Shown: positions 1 to 61,259 of the stretch, piece after piece | Numbering within the stretch: the first letter of the stretch is position 1 | Layout: the number at the start of each line of letters is the position of its first letter | From: Haematococcus lacustris | Taxonomy: Eukaryota; Chlorophyta; Chlorophyceae; Chlamydomonadales; Haematococcaceae | DNA: 64,000 bases | Direction: 5' to 3' | Assembly: GCA_030144725.1 (NCBI GenBank) | Contig: JASKMD010000029.1 | Coordinates: forward strand, 6,309,538 to 6,373,537 | Notes under the pieces: generated by a model | Databases searched by the model: none | Told to the model about the DNA's origin: nothing | What the model saw: only the letters and a program-made list of their open reading frames with translations | Made by a program: the position numbers and the translations under genes

Positions 1-52
1 AGCTGAGTGAGATTACCCACAGTCCAACATGTTATTCCTTGTTGAATAAGTT

Positions 53-1161
53 TTGTTGGAACTGCAGCACCTACGGTACAAGCATGAGATCCTGCCTGTG
101 GTGAGAGAGTTCAAGTACTTAGGCATGCATTTTAATCCCAGCGCCACCCCTGCTTTTGCTGCCACTCACATGAGGGCTGGCATGTTCCTCGCCATGCGCC
201 AGGCGTGCAAGCGTGCCAGAGAGTATGGGGTGCTGCATGATCCATATGCCCTGTGTCACCTCATTAGAGCGTTCGTGCTCCCTTTGGGGCTGTATGGCAG
301 CCAGGTATGGGGCACTGCATTCCTTGGGCATGGTGTGCAACTCTCCAACCCAGTGCAAACACGCATGCTTAGCTTTCTCAGGTTTGCTGCCAGGGTACGT
401 AGCTCAGTGTCAGGCCTGATGGTGCTGCATGAGTTGGGGCAGCTGCCCCTCCAGCTTTACTGGCTTAGGGCTGCTTGCAAGTTCTGGAACACTGCCAAAC
501 TATCCCACAGCGACCTGCTAATGAGGGTCATCAAGGCAGATGTGGAGTTAGGCAGGAGGTGTCAGGCCAGCTGGAGTGCTCAGTTCCAGCTTGCCGCCAG
601 AGAGCTGATGGGGGGTGAGTTCACCTTGAGCCCGGACATGGTCCTAGGCACCAAGGCTATGGAAGTCAAGTGGCTCGAGAGGTGGGGGAGGCGTTGGGTT
701 GGGTTTGAGGGAGACCCTAGACTGAGACGGTGCATCGGGAGAGATGCTCGTATGTTGCATGGTTCAAGCATGGGGACGGCATTGGCATCAACCACATGGC
801 ACCTCACCTGCTTAACAGACAGCTCTCTACAGAAGTTCGCACGAGCTTGACTAGGTTCAGGTTAGGCAACAGCGGTCTGGGGGTGGAGAAGGCTCGGTTT
901 GAGGGGGTAACTTTCATTGATCGCACATGCACCAGATGCACAGAGGGGGTAGTGGATGACGCCATGCATTTCATCTTTAAGTGCACTGCCACGAGTTCCA
1001 TCAGGGAGCAGCCGGAGTTTGCCATGACCTTACAGAACAATAATGAGAACTTGCATGACTTCATGTTGAGCCCATGTGCACCTTTGTTTGTGCACCTTGC
1101 TTTGAAGTGCGTTACAGAAAGTCCCGAACCCCTAGAGGGGGAGGGCGGCCTAGCAGCCTAA
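53..1161 (+). pseudogene. Non-LTR (LINE) retrotransposon, C-terminal part of reverse transcriptase ORF, frameshifted
   Basis: Two overlapping plus-strand frames together read as the end of a LINE polyprotein. The first (53-850) has the post-RT signature FKYLGMHF near its start and the thumb-like FVLPLGLYGSQVWG segment. The second (about 730-1161) carries the C-terminal zinc knuckle C-x2-C-x9-H-x4-C (CTRCTEGVVDDAMHFIFKC). The reading frame must shift near 730-800, where both frames overlap, so this copy is broken. The catalytic YxDD core is absent: a TAA stop lies just upstream (47-49) and the window begins there, so the copy is either 5'-truncated, as LINEs usually are, or continues outside the window in another frame. 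RT-family membership is from motif recognition; I cannot name the clade. Confidence 0.75.
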
Positions 1162-1715: not shown

Positions 1716-2008
1716 CTACTGTGCTACAGGCTGCCGAGCTTGGGCCTTTGGGGCCTCCGTTTCGCTGCTTCTTGAAGCCCAATGCTGGGTACCCCTTGCC
1801 TTGGGCTGGAGCCCTTGCCCGGTGTTGCTACCTGCACAGCTCCAGTGGGCGCCATGGGGCCTCCCAATGCGCTGGAGGTTGAGAGCTGCGTTGCAATCCT
1901 GTCCGCCCGTTTGCCAATGTCCCCAGGGGTGGCTTGGTCCTGCTTGGGGCACCTCATGAGCGCCCGCACCGGCGTCTCAAACCGCTTGCTCCTGGCTGAC
2001 AGCAACAA
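1716..2008 (-). pseudogene. Diverged Fanzor C-terminal relic (RuvC-III end), multiple frameshifts
   Basis: Read on the minus strand, three frames in succession match the last ~110 residues of the Fanzor protein encoded at 19462-23207. They are PVRALMRCPK (full copy: PVRGLMWCPV), then the RuvC-III box DCNAALNLQRIG (full copy: DCNAALNMQRIG), then WRPLELC, and finally GKGYPALGFKKQR (full copy: GKEYPSLGYKRLR). The frame changes between these blocks and a TAG lies just after WRPLELCR, so it is not functional. The substitutions are many more than between the other two copies, so this is a separate, older subfamily. No N-terminal part is visible upstream (2009-2402). Confidence 0.7.
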
Positions 2009-2424: not shown

Positions 2425-2905
2425 GCAGCGCTGGTGGATGGGCTGAGCACAATGAGGGCAATGGTGGTGGGGAAAACGCAGGGAGGGTGGTTCGAGGTGC
2501 CAATGCAGGGCCTCATGTGGTGCAAGGAGTACCCTGGCCTGGGCTACAAGCGGCTGCGAGACAAGCCTCCCAAGGCCCAGCAGCAGCAGCAGCAGCAGCA
2601 GCCTGCTGAGGCACAGTAATGTGTGCCCCCTTTGTTGAGCTGTCATCAGCTTACAATTAGTGCATGCAGGTCATGCCAACTCTACATCATAGCCCTCGGG
2701 TCAGGCAATAGTGTAGGTGGTAGGAGGCTCATGTGCCATGTGCACTGGGTTTACTCCACACAGCCCAATAACACTGTTTGAGTCGGATCTAGTTAGTGGC
2801 TGCTAGTGGCTGCTAGTGGCTGCTAGTGGCTGCTAGTCGGTACTTCTGATCCGGCTCAAATGGAGGCCCTAGTGAGGGACAAGGGGGCTGAGCACAATGA
2901 GCACA
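2425..2905 (+). mobile_element. Internally deleted (MITE-like) Fanzor element
   Basis: A short relative of the full Fanzor element, here in plus orientation. Bases 2425-2456 match (reversed) the upstream flank at 23486-23520. A short coding remnant follows: QGLMWC (from the zinc-ribbon region) is joined directly to KEYPGLGYKRLRDK (C-terminal tail) and a polyQ tail ending at the TAA at 2617-2619, so about 95 codons including RuvC-III are deleted. The next ~265 bp are non-coding and nearly identical to the sequence after the stop of the full copy (19204-19461 reversed). GGCTGAGCACAATGAG occurs at 2441-2456 and again at 2886-2901, bracketing the homologous core. The protein cannot be active, but the 3' non-coding block is intact. 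Confidence 0.75.
2777..2860 (+). repeat. Stem-loop in Fanzor 3' non-coding block (copy A), candidate guide-RNA scaffold
   Basis: TTTGAGTCGGATC (2777-2789) can pair with GATCCGGCTCAAA (2848-2860) as a 13-bp stem. The loop is a tandem of the 10-mer GTGGCTGCTA. Compared with the perfect stem of the full copy (19230-19303), one base is changed (C to T in the left arm). At RNA level it becomes a G-U pair, so the stem is kept. Confidence 0.6.
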
Positions 2906-13412: not shown

Positions 13413-14928
13413 TCAACAGGATGGGTTAACGGGATTGCATGTGGTGGCTGCCACTAGGGCAGTGGCGAGGTGGGTCTCACTCAGTTCACACATTCCACCC
13501 CCACTGTCTACTTGCAGCTACTGCATGATGCAGCCATGTTTGCAAGGCTGTATGGATGCGGCGCGGGCTCACAAGCAGCTTGCATGCGCCCAATGGAATT
13601 TGCAAAGCATGTGAGGTGCAGCTAACAGCCGAGGCAAAGGGACAGACCAGGCTCTCCCAGGGGGTTCGGGATGGCCGGCAGTTGCTCGGAGGGTGCTCAA
13701 TATCCCAAGATATCTCTAGGCACCCTCACAGCAGTATGAGTGTGCTCACACAATGCCTATGCCATGCTCGGGATATCAGCACAGTTATTCAGGGAGGTTG
13801 CCCGCATTGCAGAAAGGTGGCCTAAGGGTCAGTCAGCAGCTGGCTTGAATGGCGAAGTAGAGTTGCTGGGTGGTTGGTTAGTGCAGGAGGGGTTTCGGAT
13901 CAGATGCTGCCAGGGTGACGGACAGGGCCTGCATCACATGCATGTGTGGCACTGCTGACGGTACCCTTGTGCAAAGTAAACGATGTCGGGACGCACGCTT
14001 TGTATTGCACTTGCAAGTTAGACCAGCTCTCCATGCCATGGTGCCTGGTGCGAGGGGTAACGCGTTGGTTGCTAGGGCTAACCGGCAGGGGCTAGTGGGG
14101 CAGTGAGTAGCAAGTTGTGATGGCAAAGCAATGGCTTTGGCTCCTCTGTGCCTTTGCGGGGGCTCCACTGGTGCTGTTGGTCACTCCGCATTGGCACTGG
14201 ATCTGGCCAGGGCTTCCAACATCTACTGCACGAGAGCTTGTATGTGTTATGATTTGAGAGAGTAGGAGGTTGCGAGAAGTTGGATCAATTCAGATGTCAG
14301 ATCAGATCATCTGCCATTTACCCCCTCCACGCCAGCCTCCCGGCAGTTGGCTGGACCGCAATGCAGCGCTGGGTTGAACAACGCATGTGGAAGAGCAGCA
14401 GGGCGCCCCTGGAGCTGTGCTGGTGGCCTGGCCTCAGGGCCGTGTGCTGCCCAGGCATCAAAGCATACAAGTGGCTGGGCAAGCAGCTGTGTGATTTGTT
14501 CTCCAAAATCAAGGCCAGTGTCATCACAAGTGGATGCTGTGGCACACGCTGCTGCACTGTGAAGCTGCCATCAGGTCATCAGCTATCGGCTGCTCTATCA
14601 TCATACGCAATGTCGATGCACCCAATCAGCTTGGCGGGGAGCCCCAGTAGGGTCTGGCGCACCCTGCTAATCTGTTAGGCCTCGCGGCCTTAGGGCCTGG
14701 AACCCGATTTGAGCCATGGACCCCAACACCAGCAGGCACCCCTGGTGCTGGGAGCCTACCGTTTGCATGATGGCAGTTTTGCCTGAACAGTGGTGTTTCC
14801 TGGCTTGTCGCATGGGAGGTGTTGACGTCCACGAAAAAGCCCAGATGCTGTTCACATCGAGCAGCGTTCAGCAAGCGGCACACAAGCCAGTCGACTAGTG
14901 GCAGCTCACAGCTCGTTGGCCCGGAGCG
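13413..14928. other. Convergence-free intergenic stretch, no gene recognised
   Basis: Contains the 3' UTR of the Q-rich gene and the promoter side of TL17. Several ORFs of 60-132 codons exist on both strands (for example 14280-14678 plus and 14626-14955 minus). None has a recognisable domain or splice-supported extension, so I do not call them. Confidence 0.4.
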
Positions 14929-17987: not shown

Positions 17988-18236
17988 AGCGGCGATTCTT
18001 ACCTGAACATGGATGTTTCATCTTGACAACCGACCTGTTGCTTGGTCGGCGATGTGATTCCCATGAGTTGCGTCGTGCGCGCCCGGCATTTTCGCATTCG
18101 AAGGCCAAGCCGCGTTCATTTTTGGCTCGCCGTTGTTAGCTTGAGTGTGTGGTGAGTAAGGATACCTGTGGCTTCATCCTAGGCAGATTTGAAATTTATG
18201 TAGCCACGGGTAGTTGACGTCACGGGTAGCAATCAA

Positions 18237-18241
18237 TGTAA
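18237..18241 (+). terminator. TGTAA poly(A) signal of TL17
   Basis: TGTAA, the usual chlamydomonadalean polyadenylation signal, 250 nt after the TL17 stop codon and the first one downstream. Confidence 0.5.
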
Positions 18242-18440
18242 CCGAATACTGGCTGTCGTTGGTATCCGCGTCATGGTTTCGTGGGGTATTGGTTGACGAC
18301 GACAAACAGCAACAACTGCAACCACGCCACCGGTAGGCTCTCAATACTATGATGCCTCCTAGTGTGGGCACATGATCCAAAGCAGGGGCCGTTGGGGGTT
18401 GCACCACTACATGGTGCTTGAAGGTGTTGCCACACAGCGC

Positions 18441-18615
18441 GTCACACAGCGCGAAGCCCACAGTAGCCCACAGTCGGCTAGGATCACGCACCTTTCTGTT
18501 TCTTTCCCGGGTCCTTCTTGTGCTTCTTCTTAGCCATCACGCGATGCGCAGTGCGACGGGCGGTGGCCTTTTCAAGCAACTTGGGTTTCACGTGAAAAAT
18601 ACACGGTTGTGTGAA
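18441..18615 (-). mobile_element. Solo 5' end of a Fanzor element (exon 1 and upstream block)
   Basis: Nearly identical to 23110-23286. On the minus strand it holds the complete first exon (18537-18492) encoding MAKKKHKKDPGKKQK with the same GT donor, the beginning of intron 1, and the upstream block containing CACGGTTGTGTGAAA. Homology stops inside intron 1 at about 18441, so nothing else of the protein is present. It lies ~600 bp from the 3' end of the full element, in the same orientation. It may be a leftover of an aborted or recombined copy. Confidence 0.75.
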
Positions 18616-19118
18616 ACCCTGTGTTGTGTGCACCCTGTCCAGCTGACCGTGGTTGAACACTGTTTGGGCTGTTTGGGCTCATCCGCGCCCAAACAGAAGG
18701 TGTTGCAGCCTGGTTCATGTGAGGCTAGGGTCGTAGCACGGCTTTAGCTTGTCAGCCAACAGACACCCAGGCTGCCAAGTCCAGAGAAGGCTACAACCTT
18801 CGGCCACCTCAAGTAATGCCATACACAGAATACTGTACAGAAGCAAGAGGCGCTGCTCAGTTGCTCCAAGATTCTTGGCATCAGTGATAGGCGATACAAC
18901 GTTGTCATAACATGGATGCTGTAGGCCACCCCCCAGCGTCCCCACAACAGCGGTGACCCGTGTCCCATAGCTTTCTGCTGGACTGCTGCAACCTCAGTCA
19001 GGTCAGGACCAACATTGCTTCCCACTCAAGACATCTCCTGCAAGGGTGTTCCTTTGGCTACTACTAAGTCCACTTCATCCGTTAGGGCACCCTTCATAGC
19101 TACAACTCTCTTAACCCT

Positions 19119-19134
19119 GGTGGCACGTGCCACC
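19119..19134. repeat. Perfect 16-bp palindrome
   Basis: GGTGGCACGTGCCACC is self-complementary without a spacer. It contains the G-box-like CACGTG core. It lies 70 bp from the end of the Fanzor element. Confidence 0.85.
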
Positions 19135-19151
19135 CCTCACCTCTGAGTCAG

Positions 19152-19176
19152 AGGGAGCTCAGAGTCTGAGCTCCCT
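19152..19176. repeat. 25-bp hairpin (12-bp arms, 1-nt spacer)
   Basis: AGGGAGCTCAGA, then G, then its exact reverse complement TCTGAGCTCCCT. It lies 13 bp from the 13-mer that borders the Fanzor element. Confidence 0.85.
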
Positions 19177-19203
19177 TAAGAAACCTGGTTGGTGCTTGAC
19201 AAC

Positions 19204-19461
19204 CCCCTTGTCCCTCATCAGGGCCTCCATTTGAGCCGGATCAGAAGCAGCCACTAGCAGCCACTAGCAGCCACTAGCAGCCACTAACCAGATCCGGCTC
19301 AAACAGTGTTATTGGGCTGTGTGGAGTAAACCCAGTGCACATGGCACATGAGCCCGCCTACCACCTACAGTATTGCCTGACCCGAGGGCTATGATGTAGA
19401 GTTGGCATGACCTGCATGCACTAATTGTAAGCTGATGACAGCTCAACAAAGGGGGCACACA
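19204..19461 (-). ncRNA. Candidate Fanzor guide RNA region downstream of the stop codon
   Basis: The ~258 nt after the Fanzor stop are almost identical to 2620-2886 of a copy whose protein is destroyed; I count about a dozen differences plus a change in the copy number of a 10-mer. In TnpB and Fanzor loci the guide (omega) RNA comes from the 3' end of the gene and reaches to the element end, so the next bases outside would be the guide. By that rule the scaffold here would end in the hairpin at 19230-19303 and the run up to 19203. This is inference: the sequence shows conservation and a stem, not transcription. Confidence 0.5.
19230..19303. repeat. Perfect 13-bp stem with 10-bp tandem loop (full Fanzor copy)
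   Basis: TTTGAGCCGGATC (19230-19242) and GATCCGGCTCAAA (19291-19303) are exact complements. The 48-nt loop is about four copies of CAGCCACTAG. The same structure, with a longer loop, is in the deleted copy at 2777-2860. Confidence 0.9.
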
Positions 19462-22400
19462 TTACTGTGCCCCAGCAGGCTGCTGCTGCTGCTGCTGGGC
19501 TTCGTGAGGCTTGTCTCGCAGCCGCTTGTAGCCCAGGCTAGGGTACTCCTTGCCCTTGGCTGGCAGAGCTCCCTGGTCTGGCCAGTAGCACAGCTCCAGT
19601 GGCCGCCACCTGCTCTCCCCAATGCGCTGCATGTTCAATGCTGCATTGCAGTCCCTGTCCAGCCACCTGCCTGGCTGTGGTGCTGGCTTGGCTTTGGCAG
19701 CCCTGCCCTTGCCCTTGCCCTTGGTGGGCTCAGCTGCCGGCTTGGTGCGCTTGGCTGGAGGGGGACTGCTGGGCCCTGGCTCTGAGGCTGCTGGCTGTGT
19801 GGCTGCCTGGCTGCTGCGTGGGGCCTGTGGGGGCTTGCGGGGGGCCACTACCGGGCACCACATCAGGCCCCTCACTGGCTGGTCACGCTCCTGGCTCCAG
19901 GCTGGGCGCACCAGGCGCTGTTCCACCTGCCCTGCTGGTGGCTTCCAGCCTGCAGGCCTGGTGGCACTGAGTTTGTCCAGCTCCTCCTCACATGGCTGCT
20001 GGCCATTCACTGCTGAGCTGACCCGGCTGGTGCGGTGCTCATCCACAAGCACCACCCTGCACCCCCGCTGGCCTGCGCCCCTGGGCCTGCACACCACCTT
20101 GCGGCAAGCACGCAACACCGCATCAGCACCCCAACCACCCCCAGTGCCAATGGTAGCTGCACCAAAGAACACCACCAGCTGCTTGGCACACCCATGGCGC
20201 TTCATGGACAACTCCGCCATCTGCTCCTCCAACTGCAGCCATGCACACAAGGCACACACATGGTGGCTGACATGGTGGCACCAGGTTAGGCATGGCACAA
20301 TCAAGTACTCTTTCGTTTCGTGCCCAACCAACCACCTCTCAGTCCCTTACCCCCCCTCCCTCCCACCTACCCACCCATCCACCCTCACCTTGTTGAAGAA
20401 CTGCTCCAGCGCCCAGTCCTGGGCTCCGTACAGCCTCAGCCGCTGCCGTGCCCACTTGGGGTCCAGGTACACCTCCCACACCGCATCCCAGGTGGCCAGG
20501 GTGACGGTGATGTGCTTCAGGTTGGCCTCCAGGGAGGTGCCGGCTGAGCTTGCTGCTGCCAGGTGCTGGAGGTGGGGCTTGATTGGTGCTAGCCACCGCT
20601 CTGTGTTACGGCGGGCATTGTTCAGGCCGCTGGCATGCTTCACCTCGCCCTTGGTCAGCTTCCACCGGCGCAGCTGGTCTGCCTTGAGCTGGCCTGTTGC
20701 TGGATCCCACACCCCAGAGGCTGCGCTGACTGCCTGGGTGACGCCGGGGTCGATGCCCACCCCAATCTGTGTGTCTGGGTCAAACACAAACTCACGCATC
20801 TCAGCTATGCCCCTGCCTATGTGGGGGAGCCCCACCGCATGAGCCGCTGCTGCTACTGCACTTGGGCGGCTGCTGGTGCTGGTGCTGCTGGCAGCTGTGG
20901 GTGGGGCTGGAGGAGGGGGAAGGGGGCGCGTGTAGTGCACGCACACGCTGACACCATCTGTGTCCACCAACCTCTCGAAAGCAAACCCCTTGTTGCGAAG
21001 CTTGTTGGTGTTGAACCACCTGGCCCAGTGATGGCTCAGTGCTGGCTCTGAGGTGAATGCTGCCCGGGTTTCCTTGGTCAGGCCCAGCTGCCTGCACACC
21101 CCATGCAGCACCCTGCTGTCCACCTTGATGAAGTGCACCCCCACCCTGGCCATGGGGGTGAGGGTAAAGGGGGGTGGGCAGGTCAGGGTCCGGGGACCAA
21201 CCCCACGCCTCTTGCCGCGCTTTGGCTGCCCTGGTGCGGGTGGGGTGTGGGGCTGCTGCCACCGCTCTAGCCACCGGCACACACGCACTGCATGGCGCAT
21301 GCGGCAGGGCAGGGGCAGGGTGTCCTGCAGGGAGCCTTCCTTCTTCATGCCCAGTAGGCGACGGTGCTTGTTGGCCTCCTCTATCAGGTCCGCCACATGC
21401 CCCTTGTCCAGTGTGGCGGCCTTCAGCTCCGAGCTCTTGGCGTTGATGCCATACCCGCACGCCATCTTGATGAACAGCAGCGCCTCCTCACCGCTCCAGC
21501 CTAGCTGGGCCCTGGCAGCCTTGGCGTACAGCTTGACAAAGCGCTCTGCAGGTCAGGTCAGGTCAGGGTCAGGTCAGGTCAGGTCAGGTCGGGTCAAGGT
21601 CAGGTCAGGTCAGGTCAGGTCAGGTCAGGTCAGGTCAGGTCAGGTCAGGTCAGGTCAGGTCAGGTCAGGTCAGGTCAGGTCAGGTCAGGTCAGGTCAGGT
21701 CAGGTCAGGTCAGGTCAGGTCAGGTCAGGTCAGGTCAGGTCAGGTCAGGTCAGGTCAGGTCAGGTCAGGTCAGGTCAGGTCAGGTCAGGTCAGGTCAGGT
21801 CAGGTCAGGTCAGGTCAGGTCAGGTCAGGTCAGGTCAGGTCAGGTCAGGTCAGGTCAGGTCAGGTCAGGTCAGGTCAGGTCAGGTCAGGTCAGGTCAGGT
21901 CAGGTCAGGTCAGGTCAGGTCAGGTCAGGTCAGGTCAGGTCAGGTCAGGTCAGGTCAGGTCAGGTCAGGTCAGGTCAGGTCAGGTCAGGTCAGGTCAGGT
22001 CAGGTCAGGTCAGGTCAGGTCAGGTCAGGTCAGGTCAGGTCAGGTCAGGTCAGGTCAGGTCAGGTCAGGTCAGGTCAGGTCAGGTCAGGTCAGGTCAGGT
22101 CAGGTCAGGTCAGGTCAGGTCAGGTCAGGTCTGGGGTGGGCTGGGGTACAGGGTCTAGTCACCACAATCACTTGCCTGGGTTTGAGTAATGCTGCTGCAT
22201 GGCCACCGCCAGCTGCATGGAGTGTGCGTCGATGGTGTTGGCGTCACCCGCCAGGTTGATGCTGCCCAACTCCTGCAGCTTGGCCAGCAGCGCCTGGTTG
22301 CTGGGGTCCTCGAAGACTGGCATGAGCATGGGGTGGCGGCGCTGCCCTTTGCGCACAAGGCGCCGCTGCAGCTGGTTGTAGCATGTCTTGAAGTTTGGGT

Positions 22401-23207
22401 TGGCGAAGAACTTGCAGAAGTCTTTCAGCTGCCTGAGCATCAGGGGGTCCTCGCAGTCAAGGGGCAAGGGAGGGCCAGTGGGTGCTGCAGGTGCAAGGGC
22501 TGCCAGGCGGGCGCTGCAGCGCCTTTGGGGGGATTGCGTGACTGGCTCGGGTTCCGACTCTGACTCCGAGTCAGACTGTGGCTCTGGATCAGAGTCACAA
22601 TCTGACTCGGAATCAGAGTCAGTGTCACACTCCATGCTGGCAGGCTGGGCAGGGGCAGGCTGGGCAGGGGCCCGTGGGGGTAGGGGGGGTAGGGGGGGAG
22701 CATCAGGGGGTTGGGGAGGCTGCACGGCTGGTGGCTGAGCGGCGCTGCGGTACCCCGGGGTGGGGTAGCCCACCAGGCACGTTAGGAAGATTCTGAGCAC
22801 AAACAGCGACGCAATCAGGCGGAGCTGGGAGTGGATTTCAGCCCGCAGCCGGAGGTGCTCCCGCAGCTTGCGCCTCGTCTTCTTGCAGCCGCGCAGCACT
22901 GCGCCCTCGGGGACCTTGATGACCTGCAGCCAATCAAAGTTGCCATTTTGACAGGCCAGGACACTAGGCGGGGACACAAACAGTGCGGGGACACATAAGG
23001 CGGGGCCGTCACCTGGCGGTTGCGCGTGGTCCAGCCATCCCGACGCTCCTGGCGTTGCTTGCCTTGACGCGAGCGAGACGCTGCAATGGAACCAACAGGA
23101 GCGACGGGTTATCACACAGCGCGTAGCCCACAGTAGCTCACAGTCGGCTAGAGTCACGCACCTTTCTGCTTCTTTCCTGGGTCCTTCTTGTGCTTCTTCT
23201 TAGCCAT
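19462..23207 (-). CDS. Fanzor RNA-guided endonuclease (eukaryotic TnpB homologue), apparently intact
   Basis: Five exons join without a stop: 23207-23162, 23080-23013, 22923-22176, 21545-20389 and 20232-19462; 929 aa. Residues 1-38 are very basic (MAKKKHKKDPGKKQK, then RQGKQRQERR), a likely NLS. A P/S/D/E-rich disordered part (~95-200) and a helical region (~205-290) follow. About 412-435 read PPFTLTP and HFIKVDSRVLHG, and ~475-490 read FERLVDTDGVSVCVHY: the conserved Fanzor blocks before RuvC. Catalytic candidates: D553 in VGIDPG (RuvC-I), E738 in VLVDEHRTS (the relocated RuvC-II glutamate of Fanzors), and the DRD at 865-867 in DRDCNAALN (RuvC-III). The C4 zinc ribbon is degenerate: SSAV replaces the first C-x2-C and only one Cys remains in MWCPVV. 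A Lys/Pro-rich insert (~805-860, KGKGKGRAAKAK) and polyQ tail are lineage oddities. Intron 3 has a GC donor and a (GGTCA)n array. Confidence 0.85.
21551..22131. repeat. ~580-bp (GGTCA)n array in Fanzor intron 3
   Basis: More than 100 copies of GGTCA. The last ~530 bp are perfect; only the first ~50 bp contain variants. In the sense (minus) strand it reads (CTGAC)n and runs up to 4 bp before the acceptor CTGCAG at 21551-21546. The whole intron is 22175-21546 (630 bp) with donor CAG-GCAAGT. Long open frames through the array are an artefact of the 5-mer having no stop. Confidence 0.95.
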
Positions 23208-23243
23208 CACGCGATGCGCAGTGCGATGGGCGGTGGCCTTTTC

Positions 23244-23459
23244 AAGCAACTTGGGTTTCCCGTGGAAAATACACGGTTGTGTGAAAATACTATAATAAGT
23301 GCAGCCCGGGCATTGTGCTCAGCCATAGGTGCTTTGGTGCTTGACAGTCATAGGTTAGCCTGCCTGCTAGGTCGGCTGCTTGTGGGATTGGCCATCAACG
23401 CCCATGCTGCCCTGTCAAGCAACTTGGGTTTCCCGTGAAATATACACGGTTGTGTGAAA
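23244..23459. repeat. Duplicated 5' block of the Fanzor element
   Basis: CAAGCAACTTGGGTTTC followed by CGTG, an A-rich centre and CACGGTTGTGTGAAA occurs at 23244-23286, at 23416-23459 and also at 18571-18616. CCGTG and CACGG can pair as a small hairpin. The first block is 37-79 nt upstream of the Fanzor ATG, where a promoter or 5' UTR would be. CATTGTGCTCAGCC follows each at 23311-23324 and 23486-23499. Confidence 0.75.
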
Positions 23460-23794
23460 CTACACAAGTGCTGGTGCAGCCGGGGCATTGTGCTCAGCCC
23501 ATTCACCAGCGCTGCTCCCACATACAGTTGGCAGTCTGTAACACTGAGCCACACAGGACCAGTAGCTTGACTGGGACACTCCTCTCATCGCTGCCTCCAA
23601 CACATCAGGAAGGGTGTGTACCCTTCTTGTTGAAGGTGCAACATTGGAAAGAGCACAAGGCCTTGACAAGCCCAGGTAAGGAACCATCTGCCCGAGGCCA
23701 TGCCATGAGCACAGCCAACAAAGGGCCATCTGGCAGTGGTGTTTGACAGTCATAGGTTAGCCTGCCTGCTAGGCCGGCTGCTTGTGGGCTTGGC
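23341..23794. repeat. Direct repeat pair (~52 bp) bracketing a second truncated Fanzor 5' end
   Basis: TTGACAGTCATAGGTTAGCC begins a segment at 23341-23393 and again at 23743-23794, differing at two or three bases. Between them lies another 5' block and a flank (23486-23525) that matches the start of the deleted copy at 2425-2456. This looks like a nested or duplicated insertion on the 3' side of the DSS1 gene. Confidence 0.7.
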
Positions 23795-23856
23795 GCAGCC
23801 AGTGCGGACAGGGATGCTGGGTACTCTGCAAGATCCAGGCGGGCACGGGTTGGTGG

Positions 23857-24333
23857 CTACTCTGCCATTTGCTTGTCCAGCTCTGCCCGCAGGCGCTGCT
23901 GGAAATCCTCGCCCACGTCCTCGTCATCCCAGTCAGCCTCCCATAACCCTGCCGGCTCGTCTTTCACATCAGCAGCACTGGACTCTGCATACACGCCCAC
24001 ACAGGAGCTGCCAGTCAGAGACAAGGCCCTGACTGGCAGGCAGGCAGGTGTGCAGGCATAAGGAGACCCCCTTCACAGCAGAACTGGATGTAAGAAAGAG
24101 GGCATGCTAGCATTTACAGGACAGAGGTGGCGTAAAAGGCAGGGGCAGGGTGGCTGTGTTACGAGGATGATGTGATACGGTAAATTGTGATCTAGGACAT
24201 CGAAGGAGCTGGACGCACCTGCAAGCTCAAACTCCTCGAAGGTGTCCTCCTCAAAGGCGTCCGCTGTGACCTGCGGGACTTTGTCCGCGAGCGCAGGTGG
24301 TTGGCTAGTAGTGTCTTTGTCCGGCACTGCCAT
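23857..24333 (-). CDS. DSS1: DSS1/SEM1, 26S proteasome lid subunit and BRCA2 partner
   Basis: Two exons, 24333-24219 and 23984-23857, join in phase 1 to an 80-residue acidic protein, the usual DSS1 length. The product has the two conserved acidic-aromatic segments (EEDTFEEFEL; LWEADWDDEDVGEDF) and the C-terminal helix (QQRLRAELDKQMAE), the exact order of DSS1/SEM1/RPN15. The family acts in the 19S regulatory particle, in TREX-2 mRNA export, and as a DNA mimic helping BRCA2 load RAD51. GT-AG intron of ~234 bp. The stop codon is ~60 bp from repeats belonging to the Fanzor element, so its 3' UTR probably contains mobile sequence. It is divergently placed to the next gene. Confidence 0.92.
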
Positions 24334-24807
24334 TCTGTAGCACTTTGATCACGGACTTTCGAACAATAGCTTGTGCATGGACTTCCTCCCTGGACATTTG
24401 TTTGAACTCCCCAGAATTCATCCGTCTGCATGGCCGATGAAAACATTCCATTGATCTCCAGGGCTAGTCTCCCCTACAAGTAAAATACAGGTGCTCGCGC
24501 CCAAAGCTCTGAGAGTGCCGAGGTCTGGTCACTGGAGGAGAGAGCCTTCCTCGCGTGTTTATTTGTATGGCACTACCTCGCCATTGCTAATTTAGGGGCT
24601 CAATCTATCCCTTCGATTACTACTCAGAGCTGTATAACATGCATGAGTTTTGACGAGTCGTGGGTCGAACATGCGGCCGTCGGCTGTGTAGTTTGCGAGT
24701 GCTCCGCGCGGCACCGACTGTGCGCTGGGCGTCACAAGTGTTCCTCAATTGCGTCAGCGTAGTACTTTACGGGGCGAGTACCAAACCCTCGATGCGCAGC
24801 CTCCGCA
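24334..24807. other. Divergent promoter region DSS1 / membrane protein
   Basis: Intergenic between the minus-strand DSS1 and the plus-strand membrane-protein gene. It probably contains both promoters. An alternative upstream ATG for the plus gene is at 24660 or nearby. Confidence 0.4.
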
Positions 24808-27800
24808 ATGCGCCATGCGCAACTCCGCAATACTCAGCCGTGCCATCCACTGCTGCAGGGCCGAGCACATGGTGGTCCTGCTTCCGGGCGCTTGCAAGGC
24901 TATGCAGGGAACCCGGCCCTGCCCTACTGCCTGCCCTCCGTGGCTTCCCACCCCATTGCAGCAGCGCTTTGTCCTCATGCATGGACTCACAACCCGGTGA
25001 GGCCGAGGGCTGCACACCTCCACTGACCAGCAGCTATCAGAGACAGAGTATGCCCCCCTCCCCTTTCACCATGCACCTACTCCATGTGCACACACCCCAT
25101 GCAGGCGGAGGCACCTGGCTCGTGGGGGGCTAGGGTCAGGCCCAAACAGCCCTGGCAGTGACCCCACTCCCTCACCACTGCGGCATCCATTGCTGCCGCT
25201 GAAGCCCGACCTGCAGCCGCCACAGCCAGGCATGGGGACCCTGCCCTCCCTGCTCTCACCAGCTGCCTCAGCAGGAGCCCAGGATGACCTGGGTGTCAGG
25301 AGGGCAGCTGCCCGCCCCAGCCTGGCTTCACCGCACACCCCTAGCCCCCCTGCCAGCCCCAGCAGTGCAAGCAGCAGCAGCAGCAGCAGTGGTCAAGAGG
25401 GTGAGGGGGAGAGGGTCGGGCCAGAGTCAGCGCGGTGGTGGCAGCGGCTGAACCCGCTGAGCCTGCTGCCGCCCGCCCTGTCCCTGCACCTGATGCAGCG
25501 GGCAGGGGACCTCCTGCGGGCCCACTTCGTGCCTGTGCTGCTGGTGTACGCCCTGAAGGACCTGGGCTGCTTCCTGCTGCACAGGGCGTCACAGCGGGCC
25601 ACCAACCTGGGTGCGTTGCGGATCAGAGACCAGGGGGTGAGGGGGCAGGGGGCCAGGGGGGAGGTCAGAGAGGCAGGAGGGTGTGTGGGGTGGCCATGAG
25701 CCTGGGGGCTGGATGTAGACAGAGGGGATTAGGGAGGGGCTGGGGGAGGGGCCTGGGGGAAGGGGAGGGGGAGAGGTGGGGTGGGGAGGCCCAGGGGCGT
25801 TGCGCTCAGTAGGGCTGACAGGGCTGTGGGCCGCAGCTGGTGTGAGGCGTGGGGGGCCTGCTGCCTGCCTGCCTGCTGCCTGCCTGCACCCACCCGCCCC
25901 CCTGAGCCCTGCCAGCCCTGCAGCCAGGCCCTCTCAGGCGGCCAGCCCCTGCTGCCTGCAGTCAGCGACCAGCTGCTGGGCACGCATGTGGTGGCGGCCT
26001 CAGGCAACGCCTGGTGGCTCTACCTGGACTCGGCATTCCTGGAGAATAACCTAGGTGAGCCTTAGGGCGGGGGGAGGGCGGGGGGAGGGCGGGGGGAGGG
26101 GGCAGCGGGCTGGGTGAAGGATGGATAAGATCCTGCGGCCCCTCCTCCTGCCTCCTCCCTTGCTGCCTACCACCACCCTAGCTGCCCTTGCCCTTGCCCT
26201 TGCCCTTGCCCTTGCCCTTGCTCTTGCCCTTGCCCTTGCCCTTGCCCTTGCCCTTGCCCTTGCCCTTGCCCTTGCCCTTGCCCTTGCCCTTGCCCTTGCC
26301 CTTGCCCTTGCCCTTGCCCTTGCCCTTGCTCTTGCCCTTGCCCTTGCTCTTGCCCTTGCCCTTGCCCTTGCCCTTGCCCTTGCCCTTGCCCTTGCCCTTG
26401 CCCTTGCCCTTGCTCTTGCCCTTGCCCTTGCCCTTGCCCTTGCCCTTGCTCTTGCCCTTGCCCTTGCCCTTGCCCTTGCCCTTGCTCTTGCCCTTGCCCT
26501 TGCCCTTGCCCTTGCCCTTGCCCTTGCCCTTGCCCTTGCCCTTGCCCTTGCCCTTGCCCTTGCCCTTGCCCTTGCCCTTGCCCTTGCCCTTGCCCTTGCC
26601 CTTGCCCTTGCCCTTGCCCTTGCCCTTGCCCTTGCTCTTGCCCTTGCCCTTGCCCTTGCCCTTGCCCTTGCCCTTGCCCTTGCCCTTGCCCTTGCCCTTG
26701 CTCTTGCCCTTGCCCTTGCCCTTGCCCTTGCCCTTGCCCTTGCCCTTGCCCTTGCCCTTGCCCTTGCCCTTGCCCTTGCCCTTGCCCTTGCCCTTGCCCT
26801 TGCCCTTGCCCTTGCCCTTGCTCTTGCCCTTGCCCTTGCTCTTGCCCTTGCCCTTGCCCTTGCCCTTGCCCTTGCCCTTGCCCTTGCCCTTGCCCTTGCC
26901 CTTGCCCTTGCCCTTGCTCTTGCCCTTGCCCTTGCCCTTGCCCTTGCCCTTGCCCTTGCCCTTGCCCCTGCTCTTGCCCTTGCCCTTGCCCTTGCCCCTG
27001 CCCTTGCCCTTGCCCTTGCCCTTGCCCTTGCCCTTGCCCTTGCCCTTGCTCTTGCCCTTGCCCTTGCCCTTGCCCTTGCCCTTGCCCTTGCCCTTGCCCT
27101 TGCCCTTGCCCTTGCCCTTGCCCTTGCCCTTGCCCCTGCCCTTGCCCTTGCCCTTGCCCCTGCCCTTGCCCTTGCCCTTGCCCTTGCCCTTGCCCTTGCC
27201 CTTGCCCTTGCCCTTGCCCTTGCCCTTGCCCTTGCCCCTGCCCTTGCCCTTGCCCTTGCCCTTGCCCTTGAATCCTGCCCTCCGACGTCACCACGCCCCC
27301 GGCCCCTGCCCTTCTCCCTCCCCCCCCGACCCTAACCTTACAGGCTACCAGGCGTGCATTGTGCTCTTCTTCCTGCTGGCGCTGCCGCTCAACATCCTGC
27401 TGGCCTCAGCCGCAGCCACAGTGGTGGCCACACTGGCAGGGGAGGCAGCTGGCCTGCCACCAGCACCCAGTGGGCCAGGCTCCAGGCCGGGGGGGGCAGC
27501 AGGGGCCCTGGGGGGGTCAGGCAGCAGGGATGCAGCCGAGGCCCCCAAGGCTGTGCTGCCAGGGTTGGGTGCTGGTGACGACCTTGTGGCTCTGGCACAG
27601 CAGCAGGCGAGCAGCAAAGGCGGCAGCAGCAGCAGCGGCAGCAGCAGCGGCAGCAGCAACGGCAGCAGCAGCAGCAGCAAAGGTGCAGAGGCCAGCAGCA
27701 GCAGCAGCAGGGCCAGAACAGCGGGGGAGAGCAGCAGTGACCCCTCTAAGCAGCAGGCGGGGGGGGTGGCTGGCAGCATGCAGGGCGGTGACCAGGACAG

Positions 27801-55873: not shown

Positions 55874-56452
55874 ACCAAGATATCACCTGTGGCTTACAAG
55901 CTGGACCTACCCACCACGATGAGGATCACACCCACCTTCCACATCTCCAAGCTGCGGCCGTACCTTACCACCAGCTCCTTCCCCGACCGCCATGTTGACC
56001 TGCAACCACTACCCCAATTGGAGGACGGTGAGGAGTATTTCACCATTGAAGCCATCTTGGGCCGACGCTGGAACGACTCCCAGCATGCGTTTCAATACCT
56101 TGTGAAGTGGAAGGGCTACGACGACTCCTTCAACTCGTGGGAATGGGGCCCAGCATTGGCCGAACAAGAGGACGTGGCTGCCATGATCAGAGACTACACG
56201 GCTCGCTACCACGTACCTCCAGACAAGCCGGTAGACGACGATCCTGCATGCCAGATTTGCGCGAGTCGCGCTAGCCACCCTCCCATGTTACTTTGCGACA
56301 AGTGTGACCAAGGTTATCACATCACCTGCCTCACTCCACCTCTACGTAGTGTTCCCAAAGGAGCATGGCTATGTCATGAGTGCAGGCGGAACAGCGTGCG
56401 GAGGTCACGACGGTTAAATGTTTCGGGGCGCAACATTTCAGGGAGGGGGTGA
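55874..56452 (+). CDS. 3' end of Ty3/gypsy chromovirus polyprotein: integrase tail, chromodomain, PHD finger
   Basis: Partial; it begins in the assembly gap. The first residues, ISPVAYKLDLPTTMRITPTF and HISKLRPY, are the integrase C-terminal domain typical of Ty3/gypsy elements. Next is a chromodomain (EAILGRRWN, FQYLVKWKGYDDSFNSWEW) with its aromatic cage residues. Unusually, a canonical C4-H-C3 PHD finger follows: CQIC, 11 residues, CDKC-DQGY-HITC, then WLCHEC. It ends with a basic tail and a TGA at 56450-56452. The chromodomain and PHD finger both read histone tails, so this integrase probably targets marked chromatin. RT and protease are not in view. The sequence directly after the stop may hold the polypurine tract and LTR (GGGAGGGGGTGA is at the stop). 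Confidence 0.88.
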   Translation, partial: TKISPVAYKLDLPTTMRITPTFHISKLRPYLTTSSFPDRHVDLQPLPQLEDGEEYFTIEAILGRRWNDSQHAFQYLVKWKGYDDSFNSWEWGPALAEQEDVAAMIRDYTARYHVPPDKPVDDDPACQICASRASHPPMLLCDKCDQGYHITCLTPPLRSVPKGAWLCHECRRNSVRRSRRLNVSGRNISGRG

Positions 56453-57643: not shown

Positions 57644-58182
57644 CAACCCCCCTAACGATAAGGGACAACGGCTTTTCCGGACTCATCTCTGCACGGGTTT
57701 ACACGCGAATTGAAGCGTCGGAGTGCGGCCGCGCTGAGGCACGCGCCGAGCTGGTCGGGCATGTTGCCGGGTATCCGACCCTACCGAGCCTGCGGACTTG
57801 ATGTACGCTGACCCAGTATCTGTGAGTCCCCCATTGACGCGATGAATAGTGCGCGATGTGCGAGGAGCCCGACCCCATGTCCAACATCGTGACCAACATG
57901 CGCTGGCTCAGGGGCTCTGAAACTTGGAGGAGACCACAGTAGGAGCACAGCAGTGGCAGCTGCATCAATCCCTTGTGGATTAGGCTCCAAAAGGTGGGGA
58001 AACACTCCTCCATGCTGCCCACTCTGTTGATGCCAATATGGCGACCATCGGACGCAAACGAATGCCCCAGCCCTGCGTCACTGGCTAGGGAACCTATCTG
58101 TGGACCCCCTGCCAAGGTCTCAACTCTTGCTGAGATTTGCAAATAGGGGTTTTAGAAGCTGGCGTGTGCACATGCCTGCAGC

Positions 58183-61100
58183 ATGCCGACATCCAAGTAT
58201 CACCCCTACAAGGGGAAGGGCGGGCATGCAGCCCGCTGTGCGCTGTGTGTGAAGACGACACCAGCTGGTCTTGCTGGCTGGGTGGAGATTCATGTGGAGG
58301 GGGAGGCAGCCTCCTACCGCTCCGGGCAGAGTGTACGAGCCATCGGCCAGGTCACAACCCAGATGGCTGAAATCATCAAGGCCTGCGACAACTTGGTGCC
58401 CGCACTGATTCCATTAGCCCACAGGAGTTGCGCTGAGTCTGCTGCAGCTGCGCATGCTGTGTGCCAGCGGTTGCGGGGGCAGGAGTCAGCCAGTCAGCTC
58501 CAGCCCATGCCCCGTCTCAGCTCCACACCCACGCAAGCACCTGGCTCAGCAGACCAGCAGGCTCAGCTGTTGGAAAGAGTGCTCACCAGCCCCCAGCTGC
58601 CGGTGGCTGTGCAACAAGCCATGCAGCAGTGTCCCACCACAAAACAGAGGGTGGCATGCTTACTGCTCGATAGAGTGCAGCTGCTCATGGACTCCGGCAC
58701 GTGTGGCAAGAAGGGGGGCCAGCACACAGATGACGTGACAGCAAGGAGAGTTCTGGCACGCTTGGTGCCTCCAGAATTGCTAGAGCAGCAGCTTGTCAGT
58801 GCATTTGCTCAACAAACTGGCCTGGACCGCCACTGGGTGTCAGAGGCAGCGCGACAGAATCTAGATCAGCATGCATGCATTGAGGACCGGGTAGACAGTC
58901 TCCGGCACTTCGCCGCTGTCAGAAGCCCTGACAACAGGGGCCACCAGGGCATCAGCCAAGCAGTGTTCGACTTCATTCGCCATCACTACCATGAGCGCAG
59001 CAAGCCCTCGCCCTCGTGCAAGGATCAGCGGTCATATTGGGTGTGCTTAACTACTGGGTGAGTGCCATAGCGCCAAACTACATGTGCATTGTTGGCTTCG
59101 ATTGCATGAATGTGCTGCAGCCACTAGTGTGCCCCTGGTGTGCCATGTACCAAGTTGTCTGGCACAAGGCTTGCTGCATGTGTGCTTGCCATAGGGACGA
59201 CACATGCACACTTGTAAAGGAGACCAGGCGTTTCTTCGAGAGCTCACTGCTGGTGATGTGGCGTGAGTTTGATGACGAGCAGCAGCACTTGGAGGATCAG
59301 CATCAGGAAGGAGGACAGCTGCAGCAGCCACCCAGCATGCGTGTCAGCCTCAGCACGTTTGTCAGGCTGAGGCCGCCATGGGTGGCACGCCTGACGGCAT
59401 CACAGCGGCAAGTGTGTGTGTGCAAGACTTGTTGCAACCTGGACAACTTGCTCACAACACTAGCCCAACACAAAAAGAGCCTGCAGCTGCCCCCCGCTGC
59501 AGCCATTGCTGCCCCCCTGGCTGCAGTAGGCGCTGCCCCTCAGCTGCCCCCCCACCAAGGGGGTGATGCCCCCCCTGTTGCTGAGGAGGAGGACGAATCC
59601 CTCACCGCTGCTGCCTCTCCCTACATAGATCCACTTGGTGAATTTGAGCAGCAGGAGCGTAGGTGGCAAGCAGAGCAAGAGCGTCAGCCTTGGCCGGCCG
59701 CCCCACCCTTCCACCCTTCCCACCTTCCCCCACCCCTCTCCCCTCCCCTCTACACTCCTGGCCTTCCGCCTGTCCCGCTGCATTCACCACCTCCCCTCCC
59801 CCCCCACTCCCCCATCCTAATCCCACCACCTCCCAGCAAAACCCAGCCCCTGAGCGCCACAGCTATGCGGCAGTTGTTCCTGTGTCCTTGTGAGCTTGGC
59901 CAGCAGCCTGGCCTTGCATGCTCTTTGCGCACATGCCTCCATTGCAAGTCGCGCAGGCTACAGCTGCAGCCTGATGCAGATGGCAGCGTCATGCTCACTG
60001 TGCGTCAGTATGGAAAGCCATCATCAGCTGTAGGCAGCCGGCCGGCACCAGCAGCAGGCAAGGCTAAAGTTGAGCTGCTATGCATGAGGGTGAGCTTGAG
60101 TGATGTTGTTGGCATGCTGAACAAGCAGATGCCAGAGTACATCAGGCACCACCGGTTGGCACATCATCAGCTGCAGGTTTTCCGTGAGCACCGTGAGGCC
60201 GTCAAGGCAGGCCAGGATGGGAAGGTCGTGATTTCATGTGATTGGTCAGAGAAGCTGACTGTTGAGCGCAGCGTTGAGATCATGTCAGAGCATTGGCATG
60301 CGCAGCAGATGGGCATTCTCGTTGCGTGTGCATACTTCAAGAACAAAGAGGGGGCCTACAAGGAGCACACCGTGTATGTGATGACAGATGGGAAGGAGCA
60401 GTCGGCAGCCATTACCCAAGCAGCAGTAAACCAGGTGGTGTGTTACTTGCTGGCTGAGCATGACATGGACATGAGGCAGTTGTACATGTGGTCTGATGGG
60501 TGTGCAGGGCAGTTCAAGGGCGCCCCAGCCATGCGACAGCATTGGGGCATGGCACAGAGGTTCAGCATGCCGGTGTGGTGGAGCTATGGGGCTACAGCTC
60601 ACTTCAAGGGCAGGCATGATTCAGAGGGAGGGGTGGTGAAGCAGTGGTTGAGGGGTGAGATCCTGGCTGATCGTGTTGGGAAGTGCAATGCATTGGGGTT
60701 TGTGCAGCATTGCAATGCATATCACAAGCCAGCTGCTGCTGCTGACCCCAGCAAGGCTCACCGTGCACGAGCAAGTGTGGGTCATCGGTGGTGCTTGGAG
60801 CTGAGCACACAGGAGGTAGAGCTTTGCAGTGCTCCACAGCGGGATGCACATGCCTTTGCATCATCCATCCCCGGCTCTATGAGCATGCACAGCTGCTTCT
60901 TCCCTGCTGCAGGGATCCACGTTGAGTGGTCAGAGACTGCATGTGCATGTGCCCAATGCATGGCCCCCGCACCAAGGGGTGTGTGCATGAGGCCCTTAAT
61001 CACAAAGCCCTTTGTGGCCATGCCCATGTTCGATCAGAAGAGGGATGACAAGCACTGGGACGATGAGTGCCTCACCCTTCTGTGCTCATTTGCACCAGAT

Positions 61101-61259
61101 AGCGTGAAGCAGCTGTGCACCTTGGGCAAGAAGCTGAGCGTGAAAATGTTAAACGAGTATTGCAAGGCAGTGGGGTTGTATGTGCCAGCCAACACCTTGC
61201 GTGCTGACCTACGGTACATGGTACTGGAGCATCTCAATGGGCAGGCAGAGTGTGATTGA
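58183..61259 (+). CDS. D-D-E-like (RNase H fold) transposase, unclassified superfamily
   Basis: Two exons, 58183-59030 and 59195-61259, joined in phase 2 (CG-G, giving KDQRDDTCTLVK), 970 aa. N-terminal: a Cys-containing GWVEIHVEGEA region and helical part, then RPPWVARLTASQRQVCVCKT with clustered cysteines, a P-rich linker (~450-500), and FLCPCELG with CLHCKSRRL, a probable zinc site. Catalytic-domain candidates: D632 in VISCDWSEKL, D717 in WSDGCAGQFK, and HDSEGG (757-762; D758 or E760) after the HFKG motif. These blocks resemble transposase-like proteins seen in many metazoan genomes (WSDG--xQFK ... HGKG--DG-GG), which I cannot name to superfamily. C-terminal: CACAQC cysteine cluster and HWDDECLTLL. 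No internal stops, so it may be active. Start chosen at the first ATG of the open frame; an acceptor CTGCAG directly before it leaves an upstream exon possible. Confidence 0.8.

What the first reader, a model, noticed from the sequence alone, without database searches (positions are those of the whole stretch)
19202..23346. Complete Fanzor (eukaryotic RNA-guided nuclease) gene in an algal nuclear element
Seen: five exons splice to 929 aa without a stop; VGIDPG, VDEHRTS and DRDCNAALN appear in the right order, as do the Fanzor-type blocks FTLTP and TDGVSV. Known: these are the marks of Fanzor, the eukaryotic TnpB homologue, programmable by a guide RNA in tested species. Inference: this copy could still be active, since all three acidic residues are present and close relatives exist in the same window.
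Basis: partly seen in the sequence, partly recalled or inferred. Interest (0 to 1): 0.9.

Follow-up and report, generated by a model that had tools for sequence, protein, structure and literature searches.

The report
Zinc-finger-less Fanzor transposon, amplified thousandfold
The window holds an intact five-exon gene for a relative of Fanzor, predicted to be an RNA-guided DNA cutter, inside a transposon whose 3' end occurs more than a thousand times in the same green-alga genome (Haematococcus lacustris), and the relatives examined nearly all keep the catalytic residues but lack three of the four zinc-binding cysteines of known Fanzors.

Summary
In detail: on the minus strand five exons splice to 929 aa with D553, E738 and D867 in RuvC order; annotated homologues favour another donor for intron 3, giving 905 aa. 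The host is Haematococcus lacustris. A profile of three solved Fanzor1 proteins plus viral ones scores the protein 15.1 bits (best of 2,209 decoys 4.5), so it is Fanzor1-related. The gene lies in a 4,131-bp element flanked by a 14-bp target duplication (one mismatch). Genome-wide, 1,250 exact 3' ends occur. Insertions favour GG^CTG, have a fixed 3' end, variable 5' truncation and 12-16-bp duplications, much like Chlamydomonas CRe Helitron2-type Fanzor elements. The 3' UTR folds strongly and its core is shared with a subfamily only about half identical in protein; it is a candidate guide-RNA scaffold, untested. Activity, guide RNA and expression were not testable. New variant of a known kind.

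The parts
19203..23333 (-). Fanzor element, 4,131 bp, 3' end ...GGGACAAGGGGG
   Evidence: 38 fetched genomic copies stop at the same position, 28 with these exact last 12 bases and 10 with one base changed, then unique DNA; direct repeats at both ends
19189..19202 (-). 3' copy of target-site duplication (TTGTCAAGCACCAA read on minus)
23334..23347 (-). 5' copy of target-site duplication (CTGTCAAGCACCAA read on minus)
23162..23207 (-). exon 1, lysine-rich start MAKKKHKKDPGKKQK
   Evidence: similar start in annotated homologues
23013..23080 (-). exon 2
20389..21545 (-). exon 4: FTLTP, TDGVSV, RuvC-I VGIDPG (D553)
19462..20232 (-). exon 5 with stop: E738; S745 and V748 in place of the first two zinc cysteines; C799 in place of the third; no cysteine between C799 and RD867
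21546..22247 (-). intron 3 (GT-donor model) with about 116 copies of a pentamer (21549-22131)
19203..19461 (-). 3' UTR, candidate guide-RNA scaffold reaching the element end
   Evidence: fold z -4.26 for 19202-19464; core shared with subfamily 2; fewer mismatches among copies than introns, with selection bias
2457..2887 (+). short derivative that keeps only the 3' end (homology from 2522), flanked by CTGAGCACAATGAG twice (2443-2456, 2888-2901)
18442..18616 (-). isolated copy of the exon 1 / 5' block, 95% identical to 23112-23286
23409..23519 (-). partial duplicate of the 5' block upstream of the element
1759..1990 (-). decayed C-terminal remnant, closest to subfamily 2
14339..14495 (+). decayed C-terminal remnant

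Best explanation
This is an intact gene for a zinc-finger-less Fanzor1 relative, carried by a high-copy transposon of the alga Haematococcus lacustris, and it is predicted to act as an RNA-guided nuclease that likely helps the element keep or raise its copy number. Shown: an open five-exon structure, conserved RuvC acidic triad, homology to solved Fanzor1 proteins, loss of three of four zinc ligands in both subfamilies, fixed 3' end, preference for GG^CTG insertion sites, target duplications, more than a thousand 3' ends, dN/dS about 0.38. Inferred: the structured 3' UTR, transcribed through the element end into the unique flank, would supply scaffold plus guide; the guide would then match the same locus on a chromosome without the insertion; a cut there, next to the GG-CTG motif, would be repaired by copying the element. 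Also inferred: rolling-circle (Helitron2-like) mobilisation by a transposase encoded elsewhere.
For: Spliced ORF and motif order. HMM of SpuFz1, PpFz1, GtFz1 and viral Fanzors: 15.1 bits for this protein, up to 26.7 for its homologues, 4.5 at most for 2,000 shuffles and 209 reversed sequences; columns line up through DPG, DExxTS, GLxxC and RD. Direct BLASTP of a subfamily 2 protein to the viral Fanzor in the same register, E 0.008 for one pair. Foldseek ranks 1-4 are SpuFz structures, though from a poor model. Triad kept, first two cysteines never present, fourth not conserved. dN/dS 0.382 (exon 5, 27 copies with the window's) and 0.385 (exon 4, 9 copies with the window's). Window copy deviates at 2 of 196 conserved columns, equal to the median of 101 controls. 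1,250 exact 3' ends, control 0. Target motif and duplications. 3' UTR fold z -4.26, core shared between subfamilies.
Against: The C4 zinc finger, present in the solved Fanzor1 proteins, is absent, so the nuclease may be altered or dead. No covariation: 0 of 84 predicted pairs in the 3' UTR has a two-sided change; subfamily 2 UTRs fold only modestly better than mononucleotide shuffles (z -1.2 to -2.3 for the 6 of 12 copies measured). AlphaFold models are poor: pLDDT 45.8 and 41.8. Profile-profile comparison was weak, probability 3-5%, and direct PDB sequence searches found no Fanzor. If GG-CTG were the recognised motif, the element's own right junction (GGGGGCTG) would also carry it; the window copy itself sits behind TGA, not GG. 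No expression data. UTR conservation is biased by how copies were chosen.
Confidence: 0.55

Rival explanations
1. The protein is a Fanzor1 descendant that no longer cuts DNA: after loss of the zinc ribbon it is kept for another task, such as binding the element's RNA or DNA ends for the transposase.
For: Three of four zinc ligands lost in both subfamilies; Pfam zinc ribbon below cut-off.
Against: D, E and D of the triad are kept in 129/140, 151/155 and 150/156 subfamily 1 proteins and in 44/47, 44/51 and 47/47 subfamily 2 proteins, which a pure binding role would not need.
Confidence: 0.22
2. The gene is a passive passenger: the high copy number comes wholly from a transposase acting on the element ends, and the protein is only slowly decaying.
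For: Most fetched loci hold only part of the element; only 2 of 6 near-full exon 4 copies and 14 of 20 near-full exon 5 copies lack frameshifts and stops.
Against: dN/dS about 0.38 among copies and conservation across two subfamilies about half identical.
Confidence: 0.13
3. The element is moved through RNA by a LINE-type machinery (target-primed reverse transcription) rather than by rolling-circle replication.
For: Fixed 3' end, 5' truncation, 12-16-bp duplications, GG shared by target and element end.
Against: At least 70% of introns 1, 2 and 4 is found in 11, 13 and 16 of the 38 fetched loci, so spliced RNA was not the template there; 3' hairpin and variable sequence upstream of the 5' module resemble Helitron2.
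Confidence: 0.2
4. Not a TnpB/Fanzor protein but another RNase H-fold family.
For: Pfam, NCBIfam and PHROGs scans and direct PDB sequence searches gave the protein, or close relatives of it, no decisive TnpB or Fanzor hit.
Against: Known-Fanzor HMM against decoys, alignment of all motifs in order, Foldseek ranking.
Confidence: 0.03

Closest known systems
Fanzor1 elements CRe-1, 2, 3 of Chlamydomonas reinhardtii (Bao and Jurka 2013, PMC3627910)
   Same: Green alga; five exons in CRe-1; Fanzor without a recognised transposase in the element; frequent 5' truncation with intact 3' end; duplications of about 7-19 bp; extra sequence at some 5' ends.
   Different: CRe targets follow T-rich tetranucleotides, here mostly GG^CTG; the C4 zinc finger is part of the motif the paper gives for Fanzor and TnpB proteins, here lost. 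The CRe sequences themselves were not available for comparison.
SpuFz1, GtFz1 and PpFz1 (solved Fanzor1; 8gkh, 9cer, 9cf0)
   Same: DPG (SpuFz1: DPN), E or its counterpart six residues before the zinc position, RD or RN, TDG block, GLL/HLL-x-C.
   Different: These three have CxxC after the glutamate and C-x4-C before WNR; the alga's protein is 905-929 aa with low-complexity insertions against 600-700 aa for most Fanzor1 (PMC11423790, passage seen).
IS607-type TnpB and pro-Fanzors (PMC10711439)
   Same: DPG and alternative-glutamate fingerprint.
   Different: Introns; zinc finger lost; no serine recombinase was recognised in the element, though none was searched for with a model.
Fanzor repeat of Auxenochlorella (PMC12636532, passages seen)
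   Same: A Fanzor-encoding element reported as that alga's most abundant repeat.

Membership tests
Fanzor1 | RuvC-I DPG (Yoon et al. 2023) | tested here: met
   VGIDPG at 550; D in 129 of 140 subfamily 1 homologues, P in 131 of 140, G in 128 of 140
Fanzor1 | Catalytic E six residues before the first zinc position (E-alt) | tested here: met
   E738-HRTSRV-S745, in register with ExxxxxxC of the solved Fanzors; the cysteine itself is replaced
Fanzor1 | C4 zinc finger in the strictly conserved motif of Bao and Jurka 2013 | tested here: not met
   S745, V748, C799 and no cysteine between C799 and R866; cysteine at C1 and C2 in 0 of 155 and 0 of 155 (subfamily 1) and 0 of 51 and 0 of 51 (subfamily 2), gaps counted; third kept in 128 of 154 and 41 of 46; between third ligand and RD no cysteine in 157 of 173 stretches of 159 proteins, single stray ones in 16; PF07282 15.2 bits against 26.3
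Fanzor1 | RuvC-III RD | tested here: met
   D867 in 150 of 156, R866 in 150 of 156
Fanzor1 | Sequence homology to proven Fanzor1 proteins | tested here: met
   15.1 bits against at most 4.5 for 2,209 decoys
Fanzor1 | RuvC fold in a predicted structure | tested here: inconclusive
   pLDDT 41.8, TM about 0.14; still ranks 1-4 are SpuFz; a homologue (P0115) was folded, not the window's own spliced protein
Fanzor1 | omegaRNA-guided DNA cleavage | not testable with these tools
   needs biochemistry
Helitron2 (non-autonomous, CRe type) | Fixed 3' end, 5' truncation, TSD of 7-19 bp in truncated copies | tested here: met
   38 of 38 copies, chosen by 3'-end similarity, stop at the same position; repeats of at least 12 bp in 18 of 38 against 3 of 1,404 control pairs
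Helitron2 (non-autonomous, CRe type) | 3' subterminal hairpin and 5' terminal hairpin | tested here: met
   CCCT-N4-AGGG nine bases before the 3' end, stem unchanged in 38 of 38 rows; CCGTG/CACGG at the start of the conserved 5' module, by eye, stem intact in 5 of the 7 family rows where it could be read or fewer, so weaker
Helitron2 (non-autonomous, CRe type) | Insertion after a T-rich tetranucleotide | tested here: not met
   15 of 17 left repeats preceded by CTG, GG before those three bases in 12 of 17, background GG before CTG 12% of 2,642
Helitron2 (non-autonomous, CRe type) | Ends shared with an element that encodes RepHel | not tested
   the only attempt, a family search in the genome, did not complete

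The most novel reading that the evidence does not exclude
A diploid alga carries a natural library of more than a thousand Fanzor elements, each of which, by ending in a shared RNA scaffold followed by its own unique flank, would encode a different guide; a zinc-ribbon-free Fanzor uses them, with the GG-CTG insertion motif as its recognition motif, to cut the uninserted allele and home, as a built-in genome-wide drive.
Probability: 0.18. Interest if true: 0.85.

Novelty: new variant of a known kind. Interest (0 to 1): 0.62.

Why it matters
It is a natural test of whether the Fanzor/TnpB nuclease needs its zinc ribbon: two abundant subfamilies lost it, kept the catalytic triad and spread. The copy number, the fixed 3' ends and a preferred insertion motif also make the open question of what Fanzor does for its transposon testable in one organism: more than a thousand loci with predictable guides and targets.

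Tried and rejected
Pfam, NCBIfam and PHROGs scans and PDB sequence searches with the protein or its close relatives gave nothing decisive; a few chimeric homologues reach PF07282 over 14 residues. A viral scan with the family alignment found no relative. Further viral scans gave no second Fanzor: one search matched nothing, L002 shows no Fanzor among its three listed ORFs, the other stretches show none (by eye), and one search returned only L001. Profile-profile comparison had too little diversity. Both AlphaFold jobs were poor. Covariation test of the 3' UTR: no two-sided change among near-identical copies. The idea that the protein encoded at 58156-61259 moves this element (the start of homologue P0069 matches its C-terminus, read by eye) was not supported: 18000-24500 shares no DNA with that region at E 1e-5. 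A guide-adjacent motif was considered (GG-CTG) but not claimed, because the right junction carries it too. The base counts used hand-typed flanks with one row shifted; one search replaces them. My first count of the fourth cysteine looked three residues after the third; solved Fanzors have it five residues after, so one search replaces that count. PF26935 appears in the precomputed domains of viral Fanzors and some algal homologues, but the local Pfam copy gave no such hit, so I do not lean on it.
Full report
Observation. The alternative gives 905 aa in the same frame. It changes nothing in RuvC.

Host and abundance. The best 120 hits listed of the first protein search (612 with E at most 0.001, of 7,992 scored) and of the second (529 of 5,894) are all named Haematococcus lacustris; the rest were not shown. 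The window lies in a 307.9-Mb assembly in which several contig lengths (8,564,122; 8,050,159; 21,499,393) equal contigs of that species in the hit lists, while two of the largest differ slightly (17,718,615 against 17,722,355; 21,597,500 against 21,607,000). An exact 33-base 3'-end pattern occurs 1,250 times, control 0. A pattern that adds CTG and drops two leading bases occurs 1,165 times. A second subfamily, about 50-56% identical, is also abundant: 150 scored places of 13,655 candidates, listed at 93% identity or more over 83-84 residues. Copy number rests on calls; the species name rests on the hit names and contig lengths.

Is it Fanzor? Direct searches of Pfam, NCBIfam, PHROGs and the PDB gave no decisive hit. 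A viral contig, found with a degenerate DNA pattern of my own making, encodes a 671-aa protein that matches the solved PpFz1, SpuFz1 and GtFz1 at 4.5e-35, 2.8e-34 and 4.4e-23. A profile built from those and viral relatives scores the window's protein 15.1 bits and its homologues up to 26.7; the best of 2,000 shuffles and 209 reversed sequences reaches 4.5. Taken alone, the single stretches of the window's protein score low (10.5, 1.3 and -2.2 bits), but they fall in the right order at TDG, DExxTS and RD. The joint alignment carries the TDG block, DPG, the FG strand, DE-x-x-TS, GL-x-x-C and RD in order. A subfamily 2 protein aligns to the viral protein by plain BLASTP in the same register (E 0.008 for the pair). 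A low-confidence model of a homologue still ranks four SpuFz chains first among 350,542 chains, with E 9.4e-4 to 5.3e-3, then a Cas12-type structure and GtFz, but with TM-scores near 0.14. This is weak support; the alignment behind the model also held viral Fanzors.

The missing zinc finger. In the three solved Fanzor1 proteins the DE (PE in GtFz1) is followed, six residues on, by CxxC, and a second pair, C-x4-C, stands before WNR. Here the first pair reads S745 and V748; the third ligand C799 is kept; between C799 and R866 there is no cysteine. Counting homologues that align there, gaps included, cysteine is found at C1 in 0 of 155 and at C2 in 0 of 155 of subfamily 1, and in 0 of 51 and 0 of 51 of subfamily 2; the third is kept in 128 of 154 and 41 of 46. 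Between the third ligand and RD, 157 of 173 stretches (159 proteins) have no cysteine; 16 have stray ones, 3 of them three to six residues after the third ligand. The triad is mostly kept: D553 in 129 of 140, E738 in 151 of 155, D867 in 150 of 156; in subfamily 2, 44 of 47, 44 of 51 and 47 of 47. C754 is also conserved (146 of 155 and 46 of 50), so a rebuilt metal site is possible. Bao and Jurka (PMC3627910; abstract, parts 1 and 2 of 3 of the results, and passages read) call the C4 finger part of a strictly conserved motif; Yoon et al. (PMC10711439; one section and passages read) say many TnpBs and Fanzors contain it and take DPG plus the shifted glutamate as the fingerprint of Fanzors. By the second definition this is a Fanzor; by the first it fails, so I call it a Fanzor1 relative. 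I saw no description of a zinc-finger-less Fanzor clade in the listings or the passages read; a main survey of Fanzor diversity (recalled; doi 10.1126/sciadv.adk0171) is not held, so absence from print is not established.

Selection. Among fetched copies, the window's included, dN/dS is 0.382 for exon 5 (27 copies, 348 pairs) and 0.385 for exon 4 (9 copies, 36 pairs). The window copy departs from 2 of 196 columns that are at least 95% conserved, the same number as the median of 101 controls. The protein without zinc finger was thus under constraint while the family spread. Many copies are broken: 2 of 6 near-full exon 4 and 14 of 20 near-full exon 5 copies are free of frameshift and stop. Copies were chosen by similarity at the 3' end, which includes the last 92 coding bases.

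The element. The 38 fetched copies stop at the same position; 28 read GGGACAAGGGGG and 10 have one base changed; the next three bases are CTG in 36 of 38 (TTG and CCT once each), then the sequences differ. A repeat of 12 bases or more that starts at that point lies upstream in 18 of 38 copies against 3 of 1,404 cross-copy controls; the 18 include a tandem copy (L056), the pair L033/L034 with one and the same flank, and L039, which has the same flank repeat as the derivative in the window. The other 20 have no repeat of that length within the fetched 5 kb. Asking only for the bases after the three, 18 of 37 distinct flanks have a repeat of nine or more; leaving out the tandem copy, the left repeat is preceded by CTG in 15 of 17 and GG stands before those three bases in 12 of 17, where GG precedes CTG in 12% of 2,642 background sites. 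So insertion favours GG^CTG. The window copy has a 14-base duplication with one mismatch and TGA, not GG, before it. Of 12 subfamily 2 ends fetched, most also stop at ...GTGCTG before unique DNA (by eye). The conserved 5' module starts ATTTTCACACAACCG; upstream of it groups of copies differ. Apart from the target motif this is the pattern that Bao and Jurka describe for CRe-1 to 3.

The 3' UTR. It folds at z -4.26 against 200 dinucleotide shuffles, with bases after the stop codon pairing with the element end. Within a set chosen by similarity to this very region, mean mismatch between copies is 3.05 and 4.98% in the two UTR halves and 7.9-9.8% in introns 1, 2 and 4; the 17 copies with all parts, the window's included, give 3.2 and 4.7% against 8.9%; the choice favours the UTR. 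A hairpin core, GCATG-loop-CATGC, is shared with subfamily 2. There is no compensatory change in 84 predicted pairs, and subfamily 2 UTRs fold only 1.2-2.3 standard deviations better than mononucleotide shuffles in the 6 of 12 copies whose end could be located by exact match. An RNA role is plausible, not shown.

Mechanism. From established Fanzor and TnpB biology (Saito et al. PMC10432273, Xu et al. PMC11423790, Yoon et al.; passages seen), the protein would bind an RNA made from the element's 3' end and the neighbouring host DNA and cut matching DNA. In a diploid (Haematococcus is cited as diploid in PMC12636532, passage seen; the 2024 genome paper it cites was seen only by its title there) the natural target would be the empty allele. 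A cut there would favour copying of the element. All of this is inference; what speaks against it is listed above.

Noticed in passing
55895-56449 (+): End of a retroelement-like polyprotein with a chromodomain followed directly by a PHD finger (Pfam Chromo 1.3e-10, PHD 7.3e-12); masked bases (500 N in the window) lie just upstream.
   Followed up: partly
58156-61259 (+): Two long overlapping ORFs without any Pfam match; the C-terminus of the second recurs in front of a Fanzor in the annotated homologue P0069 (by eye).
   Followed up: partly
21549-22131: Intron 3 is mostly a pentamer array (about 116 copies); on the coding strand it reads CTGAC, which resembles a splicing branch-point consensus (recalled).
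   Followed up: no
26183-27270: A TGCCCT hexamer array of about 181 units, 1.1 kb, open in several frames.
   Followed up: no
homologues P0014, P0027, P0068, P0138 and others: Many annotated Haematococcus proteins join Fanzor exons to unrelated Pfam domains: either annotation artefacts or exonised elements.
   Followed up: no
L021, L038, L025, L053 (5' ends): Groups of copies share different sequences upstream of the common 5' module, as if flanks had been captured.
   Followed up: partly
50-850 (+): Open frame that looks like the C-terminal part of a non-LTR reverse transcriptase (impression only, not tested).
   Followed up: no
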